A stretch of 37,443 bases of DNA from a bacterium. Lineage in GTDB: Bacteria; Patescibacteriota; Patescibacteriia; JACQRZ01. Within the stretch, counting starts at the first letter, position 1, and the number at the start of each line of letters is the position of its first letter. The stretch spans positions 1 through 37,443 of the forward strand of contig JAHFJA010000009.1 in assembly GCA_023246095.1 (NCBI GenBank), given 5' to 3'. The position numbers were made by a program, and so were the translations under genes. The notes beneath the pieces are model-generated. The model was not told the DNA's origin. It did not search any database and worked only from the letters and a program-made list of their open reading frames with translations. Below, in pieces: positions 2,535 to 37,443 of this stretch.

Positions 2535-5500
2535 TTATACCTTCCCTGACCTGACCGTCGCTTTTCTGTCAATTTTTTGCCACCCCACATGAAATCCCTT
2601 GATAGATGTCACTAAGGATTTCCACGCTACATAATAAAACAACTGACGGAAAAAAATTCTCTGCCAAAGAATCCAAAATAACTCAATTTTTTTCTCATTT
2701 TTCTCTAACATAAATGCTATCAATGCCGATAACAAATCGGTCATCATAAAGATACTGTAGTAAAAAAGGATTTTTTCCCCATTCAACAACGCAATCTCTC
2801 TTGGGTGAAAATAATATGATATCAAAAGACCGATAATCACCCATAAAAATACTACGTCAATAATAGGCGCAATAACTGGAATAATAATTTGTTGAATGAA
2901 AACAGCTGGCATTACGATATAACCAAGAACTCCGTACTTTTTATTCATAAGTAGATCTTTATGCTTCCATGATGTTTGAAACGTTCCATAAATCCAACGA
3001 TATCGCTGTTTCAAAAAACCCTTAATAGTATCTGGTGCTTCTGTAAGACCAATCGCCTCATCTTCATACAGGATTTTGTGTCCCGCGCGCCTTACTCGTA
3101 GTGTCAAGTCTGCATCTTCTGCAAGTGTATCTGTCATAAAACCTCCCACTTCCATCATAAACGATCTTCTCCAAGCACCAACTGCACCAGGAACAACCAT
3201 TATGCTATTCCATTGAGCGAACGCTCTTCGATCAAGGTTCTGGCTTGTTATGTATTCAATGCTTTGTAAACGAGTGAGGATGTTGATCCGATTACCCACC
3301 TTTGCATTCCCTGCCACAGCGCCGACTTTTTGATCAGTAAAATGATTCACCAATTTTCTAATGGTTTCTTTCGTAAAGATTGTATCTGCATCCATTGCAA
3401 TAATTACGTCCGCATTGGTTTGTTTAACCCCCTCCATCAATGCACGCGATTTTCCTCCATTTTTTATTTTTAATAGCCTAATATTCCCCATTAGTCCAAA
3501 ATGTTTTTCAACTACTTCAACAGTATGATCAGTTGACCCATCATCCACAATTATTATTTCAAATGGCTTACCATAATCTGTGTGAAGCAATGAATCGATT
3601 GTTTTTACGATCACTTTCTCTTCATTAAATGCAGGAACAATAACAGCAACGCTACCTATAAAGGTTTGTTCTGGTTCCCTGTTTCTTTTTTTGTGGACTA
3701 TAGCAAAAATGATAATGAATATTAGTCTCACAACACCAAAAATTATCGTAAAGAAGAATAATACCCCTACAAGATATTCCAGTGTACGTATAGCAAAAAA
3801 TGAAATCCTGTCCGTCTGTATCAACCATTTTTCGTTAGGAGTAATAGAAGGCATTATTTCATCTCTCGACTTTTGGAGTAGTGTCCCCACCGTAACCAGT
3901 TCATATCCTTCCGATTTAAGTTTATCGATCAATAGAGGTAACGCAGCAAGAGTCTGTTGGCGATCACCTCCCCCATCATGCAACAAAACAACATTACCCT
4001 TACCTACGTGTACCTGTGACATTGCAGTGTCCACGATATTCTGTACTCCAGGATTTTCCCAATCTTTAGGATCAATCTGCATTCCAACAGTTACATACCC
4101 TAGATTATTTATCTCTTCAATGGGTTTTACCTCATCAGGTGTCTCCGGTTCAGAATCTTCAGCAAATGGCGGACGGAATAAATATGAGTTATGGCCTGTT
4201 ACACTTTCAATAATTCTACTTGTCGCCGCAACTTCCATATTTAACCATTTCATGGAAATGTCACTAATGTTCGGATGAGTGAACGTATGATTACCGATAT
4301 CATTCCCTTCCCTATATTCCCGAGCCACAAGAGCAGGATTTTTTTCAACTTCGCTGCCTATCACAAAAAATGTTGCTGGCACTTTTTTTTCTTTTAAAAT
4401 ATCAAGAATTTTTGCAGTTGTTTGAGGGTCAGGTCCGTCGTCAAACGTAAGAGCAATCTTTTTTGATGATGCCCCATATCGAGTAATAACATAAGGGGAT
4501 GGTAATGTTTCAAAATGCTCGTCAATAATAAAATTATTATTCTTGTCATATGTAATAGTTCTTTTTCCTTCTTGAGGATCGCTGGAAACCTTTATAATTT
4601 CACCCTGTCCTTCATAATCGAGATTATAATCGTAACGAATCGATCTCAAGGACGAAATAGTTGATTCGCTTGGAGTAATCGTTTTTGAAATTACGCCCCA
4701 CAATGAAGGATCTTCACTTCCCAATCGCCAGAGAGCGATACCTCTTGGCTGAGCGTCGGTAATCGCATTGAGTTGGTTGAAAAATGTAACTCCATCCAAC
4801 ATCCAAACTCGATGAGCAACCCCACTTTCATCTTCATAGTCAAAATATGGATTCAAAGAATTTGGATCTAAAATAATCTCGCTTTCTGATTCGCGAGCTG
4901 TCAGTATACCCTCTTCGAATGTTTTAACCTGAGCTTCACCTTTCGCTGGCCAATCGTAAGCATAGTTCCCCAAAGCGATAATTAGTTTCTCTTTAGGGAC
5001 ATCTTTCATTCTCTTAAGTAGCTGGGCCTCAAACCAATCAATTGATGCAATTGGCCCTATACTTCCCGTTGACCAATGTTCATCATACCCCATAACAATA
5101 ACACAATCGACTATCTTTGATATTGTCGAGTATTGAAACGAATCATCTGCAAAAGGTACATTAACCGTAGTCACAAGACCATCCTGATGTGCTTGATTTG
5201 TAAGGTCACCTAAAAATCCTACGTATTGCTTTTGTAAAGATTGTGGAATATTTTCAAAATCAATACTAATCCCCTGTAACTTATTTTCTTTGACATAATT
5301 AATAATCGTATCGATTGAGTTTTTCCTTTGATCATTTGATGAAAGAATAGTAACAAGGGCTTTTTGATCCCATGAAGTACCGTTATAATTATTTATTAAC
5401 GCATATATTTTTTGGTCTGGTTTCCGAGATCGAATATATTGCAAAACGTATTCTTGCCGATTTTTATTATCCTCTACAATAGAGCCATCATTTTTTAAAT

Positions 5501-5924
5501 GAAGCCACTCCGGTATAAGTACATCTATATCAGTGATATGCTGTTTCAGTGAACTAAAACTCGCGTCATCCCAGTTTACAAAAAACGCAACCCGCTCTTG
5601 CTGAGGATTTACTCGCGCCGCGATAGTTGTTTTTTGAGCCTCATTTTTTATTTGATGGAATAGTTTATTCCTTGCATCAAGGTATTTTTTCCCAAATTGC
5701 CCAGTATTTTCGACGACTGAGCGTGTCAGATGCTTTTTTTGAGGAAGTAGAGATGATGATTGTAAGTGCAATAAATCTAAAACGGGATTAATAAGGATAC
5801 TGGCGATAAGAATAGCTGCCATGAAGGTCGTAAAAACTACAACAACAATACTACCCCATCGTAACCGCTTCCAACGGATACCTCGAGGGTCATAAAAAAT
5901 AGGCTGGTCATTAGTATGCTGCAT
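2535..5924 (-). CDS. Trifunctional membrane protein: GH18-like domain, polysaccharide deacetylase (CE4), processive GT2 glycosyltransferase
   Basis: 1129 aa. GH18-like: LQGISIDFENIP, CVIVMGYDEHW. CE4: IALTFDDGPDPQTTAKIL, NHTFTHPN, RPPFAE, VVLLHDGGGDR. GT2: VPAFNEEKVI, IIIVDDGSTDHT, AMDADT, LAEDADLTLRVRRAG, QRYRWIYGT, followed by C-terminal TM segments. Confidence 0.9.
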   Translation of the reverse strand: MQHTNDQPIFYDPRGIRWKRLRWGSIVVVVFTTFMAAILIASILINPVLDLLHLQSSSLLPQKKHLTRSVVENTGQFGKKYLDARNKLFHQIKNEAQKTTIAARVNPQQERVAFFVNWDDASFSSLKQHITDIDVLIPEWLHLKNDGSIVEDNKNRQEYVLQYIRSRKPDQKIYALINNYNGTSWDQKALVTILSSNDQRKNSIDTIINYVKENKLQGISIDFENIPQSLQKQYVGFLGDLTNQAHQDGLVTTVNVPFADDSFQYSTISKIVDCVIVMGYDEHWSTGSIGPIASIDWFEAQLLKRMKDVPKEKLIIALGNYAYDWPAKGEAQVKTFEEGILTARESESEIILDPNSLNPYFDYEDESGVAHRVWMLDGVTFFNQLNAITDAQPRGIALWRLGSEDPSLWGVISKTITPSESTISSLRSIRYDYNLDYEGQGEIIKVSSDPQEGKRTITYDKNNNFIIDEHFETLPSPYVITRYGASSKKIALTFDDGPDPQTTAKILDILKEKKVPATFFVIGSEVEKNPALVAREYREGNDIGNHTFTHPNISDISMKWLNMEVAATSRIIESVTGHNSYLFRPPFAEDSEPETPDEVKPIEEINNLGYVTVGMQIDPKDWENPGVQNIVDTAMSQVHVGKGNVVLLHDGGGDRQQTLAALPLLIDKLKSEGYELVTVGTLLQKSRDEIMPSITPNEKWLIQTDRISFFAIRTLEYLVGVLFFFTIIFGVVRLIFIIIFAIVHKKRNREPEQTFIGSVAVIVPAFNEEKVIVKTIDSLLHTDYGKPFEIIIVDDGSTDHTVEVVEKHFGLMGNIRLLKIKNGGKSRALMEGVKQTNADVIIAMDADTIFTKETIRKLVNHFTDQKVGAVAGNAKVGNRINILTRLQSIEYITSQNLDRRAFAQWNSIMVVPGAVGAWRRSFMMEVGGFMTDTLAEDADLTLRVRRAGHKILYEDEAIGLTEAPDTIKGFLKQRYRWIYGTFQTSWKHKDLLMNKKYGVLGYIVMPAVFIQQIIIPVIAPIIDVVFLWVIIGLLISYYFHPREIALLNGEKILFYYSIFMMTDLLSALIAFMLEKNEKKIELFWILWQRIFFRQLFYYVAWKSLVTSIKGFHVGWQKIDRKATVRSGKV

Positions 5925-34284: not shown

Positions 34285-35256
34285 ATGGAGTTAAATATTA
34301 CTGTTGCGATAAGCGACAACGGTGTTATTGGAAAAAACGGCAACGATCTATGGAACATGCCTGCTCATCTTGAACGCTCTGGGCAACTAACAAAAAAGGC
34401 GGATCGGATTGTGATAGGAAGAGCAACACACGACTTCAAAGTTGCTCGACTACGCAAGCAAATACCAAAAAGAGAAACGATTGTGATTACCGGCAATCGT
34501 AACTACATTGCAAGGACTGGATATAAAGTTGCGCATTCGTTTGAAGATGCAATCAATTCAATAAACAATTCGGAACAAGTCTTTGTTATTGGAGGCGCGG
34601 AGATGTACCGATTAGCAATGCCTTACGCAGACAGGATCTACGTTACTCGTCTCCATACAGAGATTGACAGCGATATTCTGTTTCCGGAAATTTCCAGCAG
34701 TGAATGGAAAATAGTATCGAAGGCAAGCAGTTACCGAAACAATTTAAATCCGTATGACTATTCATTTGAAGTGCATGAGAGAAGAGAACTGCGAAAAAAC
34801 ATAATGACCAACAAAGGCTCCACTAAGTTCACCAACCCCAATGCATCACACAATCCAAAACTAAGGTCATTATTGGAAGGCTATCAAAAAAATGGTATCT
34901 GCCCATTTTGCCCGGAACATTTATTGCCGGACCACACTAGGGAGATATTAAAAACTGGACATTATTGGCTCATCACTCACAATGCCTGGCCACTGCCGCA
35001 CACCAAACATCATTTCTTACTGATCTTACACAAACGCCATGTAGATGACATAGGTGATCTTACTCCTGAAGAATGGTCAGAATTGTTAGATCACTATCGA
35101 TATTTGAAAGCAAAATTTCAAATACAGGGTTGCGGATTTTTTATTCAATCTGGTGATATTACAAAAAATAAATCATCCATAGCTCATACTCATGTAGAAA
35201 TTGCAGAATCTGACAATTGCGATGAACATGAAGAAGTTCATGTAACCTTGGGTTAA
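34285..35256 (+). CDS. Fusion: DHFR-like domain (aa ~1-165) plus HIT-superfamily-like domain (aa ~174-323)
   Basis: SD AGGAGG before the ATG. DHFR-like: ITVAISDNGVIGKNGNDLWNMP...VFVIGGAEMYRLAMPYADRIYVTRL...FPEISSSEWKIVSK. HIT-like: GICPFCPEHLL...HYWLITHNAWPLPHTKHHFLLILHKRHVDDIGDL...SSIAHTHVEIAE. No in-frame stop between the domains; an internal ATG exists at 34804. Confidence 0.8.
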   Translation: MELNITVAISDNGVIGKNGNDLWNMPAHLERSGQLTKKADRIVIGRATHDFKVARLRKQIPKRETIVITGNRNYIARTGYKVAHSFEDAINSINNSEQVFVIGGAEMYRLAMPYADRIYVTRLHTEIDSDILFPEISSSEWKIVSKASSYRNNLNPYDYSFEVHERRELRKNIMTNKGSTKFTNPNASHNPKLRSLLEGYQKNGICPFCPEHLLPDHTREILKTGHYWLITHNAWPLPHTKHHFLLILHKRHVDDIGDLTPEEWSELLDHYRYLKAKFQIQGCGFFIQSGDITKNKSSIAHTHVEIAESDNCDEHEEVHVTLG

Positions 35257-35412: not shown

Positions 35413-35925
35413 ATGATAAAAGTGTCTGTCTGTATGGATCGTAATGGGGTAATCGGAAACAAGAGTACCATACCTTGGATGAAAGAATTGCCCAATGACA
35501 TGAAGAAATTTATTAGGCTCACGAAGGGAGCAATAATAATAGTTGGACGCAAGACTCTTGAAGAGTGTATTAAAGAACCACTTAAAGGAAGAACAAACAT
35601 AGTGGTGAGCAGAACACTCAATCTCTATATCAAAGATTGTGCGATCGCCCACTCTGTTGAAGCGGCAATTGCCTATGCGACCAGTATTAGTCTTACAAAA
35701 GACAACATCTGGATTATCGGTGGTTCAGAGATATATCGCCAGACATTGGATTTGGCTGACGAACTTTACTTAACCGTAATCGACCACGAATTTGAAGGAG
35801 ACAGTTATTTCCCAAGATGGTCAACAAGTGAATGGGAATTAACGTCGATTGAAGAATTTTCTGCCGATGAGAAAAACGTATATGCTCATCGGTTCGAAAT
35901 TTGGAGAAGAAAGAATAATAACTAA
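35413..35925 (+). CDS. Dihydrofolate reductase
   Basis: 170 aa; VSVCMDRNGVIGNKSTIPWMKELPNDMKKFIRLTKGAIIIVGRKTLEE...KGRTNIVVSR...IWIIGGSEIYRQTL; retains the Asp in PNDMKKF. Confidence 0.9.
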   Translation: MIKVSVCMDRNGVIGNKSTIPWMKELPNDMKKFIRLTKGAIIIVGRKTLEECIKEPLKGRTNIVVSRTLNLYIKDCAIAHSVEAAIAYATSISLTKDNIWIIGGSEIYRQTLDLADELYLTVIDHEFEGDSYFPRWSTSEWELTSIEEFSADEKNVYAHRFEIWRRKNNN

Positions 35926-35941: not shown

Positions 35942-36889
35942 ATGAATAATTTAATGGAAGTCGTTCAGCCTATCATTTATAGGCCAGACGAATTCAGAGA
36001 AAAAGAACTGCAATATCCACGCCTCATACGTGATATTTACTTCGAAGGTGAAAGAAGGTTCGCACAATGGCAAAAAACAGAATCCGGTGAACCAGAGGAA
36101 TTCAGATACCTTACAGGACAATTGATGGACTTTGATTTAAGTAATGGTGTACCTTTTACAACTCTGAGAGATTTAAAAGGTGCCGTTGAATCGGCGATCA
36201 ATGAACTTAGGGCATTTCTTGGGGGTGCAGTTACTATCGAAGAATATGAAAGTTACGGCGCAAATCCGAACTGGTGGAAAGCTTCGCTCACTGCTGAAAA
36301 ATGCGCAGTGTTTGGCCTAAAAGAGGGAGAATTCGGTAAAGGTGGTTATGGTTCTGCGCTCACACAGAGGATAAAAAATGGAAAAGTTTTTAATCAAGTT
36401 AAAGTTTTACTTCAACAGATGAAAGATTTTCCTAATGCCACAACACACCTTCTTGTTACGTGGTATCCAGAGTATGACCTTGGTACAAAAGAAGAACCAC
36501 GTGAAGTCGCGACAGCTCCATGTCATGGTACAACAGTTTATTTTGATATCAACATGGAAACAGGCACTTTAGCGGTAATTCACGTTCAGCGTGCAGCTGA
36601 TGGACCAGTAGGATTGGTGTTCAATATCCTCCAATATATAGTTTTGGGAATGATGATAGCGCATCTTCTAGGATTAACCTTTACAAGATACAAGCATTTC
36701 ATACTCAATGCACATATCTATGGAGTACAGTTCGAAGCAGTAAAAAAAATACTTGAACGCGCACCGCGTGTTCCGCCAGTATTGATATTAAAAAGAAGGG
36801 TTACGGATATTTCAGATTTTCGTGCTAACGATTTTGAACTACAGAAATATAATCCGTGGCCTGCACTTTTTATTAAAACACCATTTTAG
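35942..36889 (+). CDS. Divergent thymidylate synthase (ThyA family)
   Basis: 315 aa; FRYLTGQLMDFDLSNGVPFTTLRDLKGAVESAINELRAFLGG, catalytic APCHGTTVYFDI, QRAADGPVGLVFNILQYIVLGMMIAHLLG, HIYGVQFEAVKKILERAPRVPPVL. Confidence 0.87.
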   Translation: MNNLMEVVQPIIYRPDEFREKELQYPRLIRDIYFEGERRFAQWQKTESGEPEEFRYLTGQLMDFDLSNGVPFTTLRDLKGAVESAINELRAFLGGAVTIEEYESYGANPNWWKASLTAEKCAVFGLKEGEFGKGGYGSALTQRIKNGKVFNQVKVLLQQMKDFPNATTHLLVTWYPEYDLGTKEEPREVATAPCHGTTVYFDINMETGTLAVIHVQRAADGPVGLVFNILQYIVLGMMIAHLLGLTFTRYKHFILNAHIYGVQFEAVKKILERAPRVPPVLILKRRVTDISDFRANDFELQKYNPWPALFIKTPF

Positions 36890-36909: not shown

Positions 36910-37341
36910 ATGATAAACGCAGACACACGACTCGTATATCCAGAGAACGCTAAGAGTGAAGCATATCGCACTTATCTTGAGGAAATCGAAGCAGCGAAGG
37001 AATGTCCCTTTTGTGAAGCATACCTAATGAAATGGAAAAAAATCCCACCCATCAAGACAGGAAAATATTGGCTTGTTGTTCCTTTGGACTTTCCACATGA
37101 AAACGCTGATGTTCATTTTATGTTTATAGCGAAAAAGCACGTCACCGACATAGACGAGTTACCCACTAAAGCAGAAAATGAACTATTCAGATTGAGACGA
37201 TGGTTGAAAAAAAAGTACAAACTAAAATACGGCACGATCCTAATGCGTTCGGGTGGACCCGAAACAGGCCAAACCGTAACTCATCTTCATGCTCAATTGG
37301 TCAAAGCAAAAAAAGGTGTAATAGTTCTCACTAGAATATAA
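36910..37341 (+). CDS. HIT-superfamily-like protein with HxHxQ motif
   Basis: 143 aa; ECPFCEAYLMKW...GKYWLVVPLDFPHENADVHFMFIAKKHVTDIDELP...QTVTHLHAQLVKAKKG. Confidence 0.8.
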   Translation: MINADTRLVYPENAKSEAYRTYLEEIEAAKECPFCEAYLMKWKKIPPIKTGKYWLVVPLDFPHENADVHFMFIAKKHVTDIDELPTKAENELFRLRRWLKKKYKLKYGTILMRSGGPETGQTVTHLHAQLVKAKKGVIVLTRI

Positions 37342-37349
37342 ACTAAATT

Positions 37350-37443
37350 TCACTTTTGAAGCGGGACGTAGATAATCTCTACACCCGCTTCTTTTAATAT
37401 AGCTTCCGAATCCAATGCCGAGTATCCTTGGGTATAATAAACA
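37350..37443 (-). CDS. C-terminal end of a minus-strand protein, possibly dCMP deaminase-like, truncated by window edge
   Basis: Manual translation VYYTQGYSALDSEAILKEAGVEIIYVPLQK*; resembles the C-terminal Y....Y.D..A...L.EAGVEV..V of dCMP deaminases. Very short. Confidence 0.35.
   Translation of the reverse strand, partial: VYYTQGYSALDSEAILKEAGVEIIYVPLQK

What the first reader, a model, noticed from the sequence alone, without database searches (positions are those of the whole stretch)
34285..35256. DHFR-like::HIT-like fusion in which both catalytic motifs are altered
A DHFR-like domain is continuous with a HIT-like domain. In the DHFR part, the position matching the catalytic Asp27 of E. 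coli DHFR (W-N-L-P-A-D-L-A-W-F) reads W-N-M-P-A-H-L-E-R-S, so Asp becomes His (codon at 34366-34368) and the folate-contacting Phe is also replaced. In the HIT part, the HxHx(H/Q) motif reads H-T-H-V-E (Glu codon at 35197-35199). A normal-looking DHFR and a HIT protein with HxHxQ are encoded right after it. The fusion may be a repurposed nucleotide/pterin sensor or a RibD-C-like reductase coupled to a nucleotidyl-transfer-fold domain, rather than a plain DHFR.
Basis: partly seen in the sequence, partly recalled or inferred. Interest (0 to 1): 0.72.

Follow-up and report, generated by a model that had tools for sequence, protein, structure and literature searches.

The report
Altered DHFR–HIT fusion, thymidylate gene module
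A protein that joins a folate-reductase-like half to a nucleotide-hydrolase-like half has lost the reductase's catalytic acid, and it sits next to intact copies of both enzymes inside a conserved, apparently undescribed gene set that looks like an unusual way of making the DNA building block thymidylate.

Summary
ORF 34285-35256 is an intact DHFR::HIT fusion. At the Asp27 position it has His; among 113 aligned DHFR domains 111 have Asp, one Glu, and only this one His. Phe31 is Ser, also unique. In the HIT half only the third motif residue is changed (H-T-H-V-E); the catalytic middle His is kept. So the DHFR half is probably dead as a DHFR; the HIT half need not be.

Between the canonical DHFR and HIT genes lies a divergent thymidylate synthase. 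Contig C40 continues the window by an exact 120-base overlap and carries a dCMP-deaminase-like gene (CDA2) and a cytidylyltransferase-like gene (NTase). This NTase-CDA2-HIT-TS set occurs in 68 of 68 sufficiently long CDA2 loci, in Patescibacteria and some Actinobacteria, usually with DHFR. DHFR::HIT fusions probably arose several times in it; those found outside this genus keep the acid.

Best reading: the fusion is a derived sixth member of a complete five-gene module, probably a non-reducing partner of the active HIT and DHFR. The module may make dTMP on a nucleotidyl-linked carrier: cytidylylate, deaminate, methylate, release. That pathway is inferred, not shown.

The parts
34285..35256 (+). 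DHFR::HIT fusion ORF, 323 aa
   Evidence: ORF; Pfam; AlphaFold2 mean pLDDT 89.6, both halves well folded
34285..34791 (+). DHFR-like half, residues 1-169
   Evidence: DHFR_1 E 3.5e-37; Foldseek to DHFR structures, TM mostly 0.85-0.93 by target length, rmsd about 1.9
34366..34368 (+). CAT, His at the position of E. coli DHFR Asp27
34378..34380 (+). TCT, Ser at the position of E. coli DHFR Phe31
34795..34833 (+). flexible linker, residues 171-183
   Evidence: pLDDT under 50
34834..35253 (+). HIT-like half with CPFC (34900-34911) and H-T-H-V-E (35185-35199)
35413..35925 (+). separate canonical DHFR (DHFR2), Asp27 and Phe31 kept
   Evidence: DHFR_1 E 7.2e-48
35942..36889 (+). divergent ThyA-type thymidylate synthase, the only TS found in this genome
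   Evidence: PF00303 E 1.9e-41
36910..37341 (+). separate HIT protein (HIT2), CPFC and H-L-H-A-Q
   Evidence: PF01230 E 9.8e-5
37350..37443 (-). 3' end of CDA2 (dCMP-deaminase-like); the gene continues as L095:27-881 (-), followed by NTase at L095:871-1497 (-) outside the window
   Evidence: window 37324-37443 is identical to bases 1-120 of contig C40; ORFs; deaminase Zn motif kept

Best explanation
The ORF is a real bifunctional-type DHFR::HIT fusion that belongs to a conserved gene module: a cytidylyltransferase-like enzyme (NTase), a dCMP-deaminase-like enzyme (CDA2), a divergent thymidylate synthase (TS), DHFR and a HIT protein. In this genome the module is already complete with separate canonical DHFR2, TS, HIT2, CDA2 and NTase; the fusion is an extra, derived copy. 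Its DHFR half keeps the fold, the NADPH-binding residues and Arg57, but its folate pocket is changed at Asp27 and Phe31 (and Met20, Leu54), so it very probably no longer reduces dihydrofolate. Its HIT half keeps the CPFC metal-type motif and the nucleophilic His, so it may still bind or cleave nucleotidyl phosphoesters. Most likely it acts as a non-reducing partner of HIT2 and/or DHFR2 (HIT enzymes are dimers), helping the last step of the module. Likely chemistry of the module: NTase joins a cytidylate to a carrier phosphate, CDA2 deaminates it, TS methylates it using methylene-tetrahydrofolate, DHFR2 recycles the folate, HIT releases dTMP. Shown: gene content, conservation, residue changes, predicted folds. 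Inferred: loss of reduction, partner role, and every reaction of the carrier pathway.
For: Unique D27H and F31S with R57, T46, G95, G96, Y100 and T113 kept. Four other fusions (L147, L173, L180 = G054, L182) keep Asp27 and HxHx(H/Q), so the change is specific to this genus. Canonical DHFR2 and HIT2 group with other module genes and not with the fusion halves. The genus-mate G001 keeps an orthologous open frame in which the DHFR glycine motif has also gone, while a canonical DHFR and ThyA are elsewhere. 68 of 68 CDA2 loci of 10 kb or more hold NTase, CDA2, HIT and TS. In a class survey, all 15 genomes with the HIT (E below 1e-30) are among the 16 with full-length CDA2, of 381. Second, degenerate HIT copies beside an active HIT recur: L124 and L138 are tandem HIT-HIT chains whose second copy lost the catalytic His, and L133 has a separate one. 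NTase's best solved match (by an f22 homologue) is ethanolamine-phosphate cytidylyltransferase, E 1.3e-19. Module TS keep Cys146, Asn177 and Arg166, but none of 80 keeps all four dUMP-phosphate arginines, against 35 of 36 ordinary TS.
Against: No biochemistry. The partner role rests on analogy. G001 keeps the fusion although CDA2 was not found there and its TS is ordinary, so the fusion may have a role outside the module. This genome has a dUTPase, so free dUTP/dUMP chemistry also exists. Loss of Arg127 is not specific: 15 of 20 divergent TS without the module also lack it, and 3 of 20 lack Arg21 and Arg127 together. CDA2's N-terminal domain could not be shown to be nucleotidyltransferase-like (hhalign probability 4%; no such match among the 50 best folds).
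Confidence: 0.5

Rival explanations
1. Relic: the fusion was the old DHFR and HIT of the lineage, was made redundant when separate DHFR2 and HIT2 came in, and is now drifting towards loss with no important role.
For: Both active sites carry unique changes; redundancy in the same operon; very long branch of the G001 orthologue (3.9 changes per site) and lost glycine motif there.
Against: Frames of 323 and at least 294 codons without a stop survive in two species whose proteins are only 27% identical; the remaining conserved DHFR columns and the HIT CPFC and HxH residues are largely intact in the window copy; good ribosome-binding site.
Confidence: 0.25
2. Altered enzyme: the DHFR half still transfers hydride from NADPH, to another pterin or substrate, or with His as the acid.
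For: NADPH site residues kept; fold kept.
Against: A catalytic Asp or Glu is kept in 112 of 113 aligned DHFR domains; the folate-contacting Phe31 is also lost; G001 has lost the cofactor glycine motif too.
Confidence: 0.13
3. Sensor: the DHFR half binds folate or NADPH without turnover and regulates the HIT half or the operon.
For: Ligand residues for NADPH and the folate glutamate (Arg57) kept while the acid is lost.
Against: No regulatory or DNA-binding domain seen; no specific evidence; fusions elsewhere keep the catalytic Asp.
Confidence: 0.12

Closest known systems
Dihydrofolate reductase, DHFR_1 (PF00186), e.g. Bacillus DHFR 1ZDR/3JW3
   Same: Fold, about 33-36% identity, NADPH motifs, Arg57, Thr113
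   Different: Asp27 to His, Phe31 to Ser; fused to a HIT domain
HIT superfamily (PF01230; Fhit, Hint, aprataxin, GalT)
   Same: HIT sequence region, first two His residues of the triad
   Different: Third residue Glu; CPFC-containing subfamily below or near the Pfam cut-off; fused to DHFR
Bifunctional DHFR-TS of protozoa
   Same: DHFR covalently joined to another enzyme of the thymidylate cycle (own knowledge; PMC4866688 describes one)
   Different: Partner is HIT, not TS; here the DHFR half has lost the acid. DHFR/RibD_C-like::TS fusions do occur in relatives (L078, L081)
Ordinary thymidylate locus of the same class (dCMP deaminase, dUTPase, ThyA, DHFR, TMK)
   Same: Position in several genomes next to ribosomal protein L1 and GatB; DHFR and TS present
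   Different: No HIT and no NTase; short deaminase; TS with all four phosphate arginines

Membership tests
Dihydrofolate reductase | DHFR_1 profile and fold | tested here: met
   E 3.5e-37; TM mostly 0.85-0.93 to DHFR structures
Dihydrofolate reductase | Acidic residue at Asp27 position | tested here: not met
   His; 112 of 113 aligned domains have D or E
Dihydrofolate reductase | NADPH-binding residues (G43, R44, T46, G95, G96) | tested here: met
   all present
Dihydrofolate reductase | NADPH-dependent reduction of dihydrofolate | not testable with these tools
   needs enzyme assay
RibD_C reductase | PF01872 profile | tested here: not met
   no match at E 0.1
HIT superfamily | Homology to HIT proteins | tested here: met
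   below Pfam cut-off but E 3.3e-16 to a stand-alone HIT gene
HIT superfamily | H-x-H-x-H/Q with central nucleophile | tested here: inconclusive
   first two His kept, third is Glu
NTase-CDA2-HIT-TS module | Gene neighbourhood with all four genes | tested here: met
   HIT2 and TS in window, CDA2 and NTase on overlapping contig C40
ThyA thymidylate synthase (35942-36889) | Catalytic Cys146, Asn177, Asp169, His207, Tyr209 | tested here: met
   all present
ThyA thymidylate synthase (35942-36889) | Four dUMP-phosphate arginines (R21, R126, R127, R166) | tested here: not met
   only R166; role of R21 from PMC4661567, the others own knowledge

The most novel reading that the evidence does not exclude
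The module is a previously undescribed carrier-linked route to thymidylate: a cytidylyltransferase loads (d)CMP from (d)CTP onto a phosphorylated carrier, CDA2 deaminates the bound nucleotide, a TS with a remodelled phosphate site methylates it, and HIT releases dTMP. The DHFR::HIT fusion with lost acid is a non-catalytic partner that evolved inside it.
Probability: 0.3. Interest if true: 0.92.

Novelty: new variant of a known kind. Interest (0 to 1): 0.63.

Why it matters
Thymidylate synthesis is thought to have two main routes, ThyA with DHFR and ThyX. A tightly conserved gene set that adds a cytidylyltransferase and a HIT hydrolase to TS, in uncultured Patescibacteria and in cultivable Actinobacteria (Solirubrobacter soli, Actinomadura, Spirilliplanes), would be a third arrangement and can be tested in those strains. 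The fusion shows how a catalytic domain can be kept after its catalysis is lost, beside its active paralogues.

Tried and rejected
Chance or artefact: rejected, because the frame is open and an orthologue exists in a second species. RibD_C reductase: no profile match. A single ancient origin of DHFR::HIT fusions: the HIT and DHFR trees scatter the fusions, which fits several independent joinings of neighbouring genes (in family f22 separate DHFR and HIT genes overlap); deep forks are weakly supported. DHFR2 and HIT2 as recent duplicates of the fusion halves: not supported by the trees. CDA2 N-terminus as a nucleotidyltransferase relative: only an H-x-G-Y/H motif lines up, not significant. Phages or plasmids as source: full-length CDA2 was not found in annotated phages or plasmids; one viral contig, L224, carries NTase and CDA2. 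First genome-contig scan with the fusion itself found nothing. Literature searches for the module found nothing in the held library, which lacks most subscription papers.

Full report
Check of the observation. The ORF at 34285-35256 is intact and has a good ribosome-binding site. Its first half is DHFR by profile (3.5e-37) and by predicted fold (mean pLDDT 89.6; TM mostly 0.85-0.93 to solved DHFRs). The two halves are joined by a low-confidence linker at residues 171-183. Position 28 is His where E. coli has Asp27, and position 32 is Ser where it has Phe31. Across 113 aligned DHFR domains, mostly Patescibacteria, these are the only such changes; other hallmark residues (Arg57, Thr113, the NADPH glycines) are kept. 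In the HIT half, H-T-H-V-E differs from the family only at the third position. The nucleophile is intact, so this half cannot be called dead. Asp27's hydrogen bond to Thr113 and the natural use of Glu at this position are documented in PMC8399027; that the acid is needed for efficient reduction is own knowledge.

Surroundings. After the fusion come a canonical DHFR (35413-35925), a ThyA-type TS (35942-36889) and a HIT protein with H-L-H-A-Q (36910-37341). The window is a whole contig, and its last 120 bases equal the first 120 of contig C40 of the same genome. C40 carries, convergent to HIT2, a dCMP-deaminase-like protein of 284 aa (CDA2) and a cytidylyltransferase-like protein of 208 aa (NTase). 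The TS is the only PF00303 member found in the genome and no ThyX was found. SHMT and dUTPase are present.

A conserved module. A scan of 84,980 species genomes with CDA2 gave 80 loci. All 68 loci of 10 kb or more hold NTase, CDA2, HIT and TS, 61 of them also a DHFR-type gene, and HIT is convergent with CDA2 in 67 loci. The carriers are many Patescibacteria lineages and Actinobacteria (Solirubrobacter, Actinomadura, Actinocorallia, Spirilliplanes); in Actinomadura NTase and CDA2 are one protein. The loci were picked by CDA2 only, so the presence of the other genes was not selected for. Independently, in 381 genomes of the class, 16 had full-length CDA2 and 15 the HIT at E below 1e-30, all 15 within the 16. 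Ordinary thymidylate loci of the class have dCMP deaminase, dUTPase, ThyA, DHFR and TMK without HIT or NTase.

Origin of the fusion. In family f22 separate DHFR and HIT genes overlap. Fusions occur in Kazan (L147), Berkelbacteria (L182), G054/L180, L173 and this genus. In the HIT tree the window and G001 fusions are sisters (98/92) and the other fusions lie elsewhere, so fusion probably happened several times. All the fusions found outside this genus keep Asp27 and a normal triad. DHFR2 and HIT2 group with L135 and other module genes, not with the fusion halves. In G001 the fusion frame survives, though cut by the contig end, but the DHFR glycine motif and the third HIT residue are also lost; G001 has an ordinary DHFR and ThyA, and no deaminase was found. 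So loss of reductase catalysis is a trend of the genus, while a protein product seems to be retained.

How it may work. Second, degenerate HIT copies are a recurring feature: 17 loci have two or more HIT ORFs, L124 and L138 carry tandem HIT-HIT chains whose second copy lost the catalytic His, and L133 a separate degenerate copy. HIT enzymes act as dimers (own knowledge), so I propose that the fusion's HIT half is a partner of HIT2, with the DHFR half a non-reducing appendage or a tether to DHFR2. This is inference.

Chemistry of the module. An f22 NTase matches ethanolamine-phosphate cytidylyltransferase best (1.3e-19); CDA2's C-terminal half matches dCMP deaminases (1e-22). Module TS keep the catalytic residues and the Asn177 associated with dUMP, but none of 80 keeps all four phosphate arginines, against 35 of 36 ordinary TS of the class. 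Arg21 binds the dUMP phosphate (PMC4661567). A further control weakens this: among 20 divergent TS without the module, 15 lack Arg127 and 3 lack both Arg21 and Arg127; against that, 63 of 80 module TS lack both. A substrate whose phosphate is esterified to a carrier would explain NTase, the changed phosphate site and HIT together. The carrier is unknown and no step has been tested.

Verdict. The finding is correct in its sequence facts, too strong about the HIT half, and incomplete about context. The fusion alone is a moderately interesting probable pseudo-enzyme; the module around it is the larger lead. I found no description of it in the held library.

Noticed in passing
L037:2955-4403, L183, L184, L191, L192: Module variant whose TS is fused to an MtrA-like domain and a PterinBD-DUF4346 domain; G060 showed no DHFR, so a different pterin or cofactor recycling may be used.
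   Followed up: partly
L078:3633-5153, L081:5233-6672: DHFR/RibD_C-like reductase fused to module TS in family f57.
   Followed up: partly
L138:7932-8921, L124:7982-8662: Tandem HIT-HIT proteins with one intact triad and one that has lost the catalytic His.
   Followed up: partly
L236-L248: Divergent TS-like proteins of the same class with Asp at the Asn177 position, as in dCMP-specific enzymes.
   Followed up: no
L224:3471-4831: NTase and CDA2 side by side on a 158 kb contig classed as viral; the classification was not checked.
   Followed up: partly
window 37324-37443 and contig G000:C40: Exact 120-base overlap: the window contig can be extended by 3638 bases.
   Followed up: yes
window 2535-5924: 1129-aa ORF that by eye joins a glycoside-hydrolase-like part, a polysaccharide-deacetylase-like part and a glycosyltransferase-like part; no profile search was run.
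   Followed up: no
L036:2405-3424, L082:2095-3110: NTase and HIT genes paired without CDA2 or TS, including in the window's own family.
   Followed up: no
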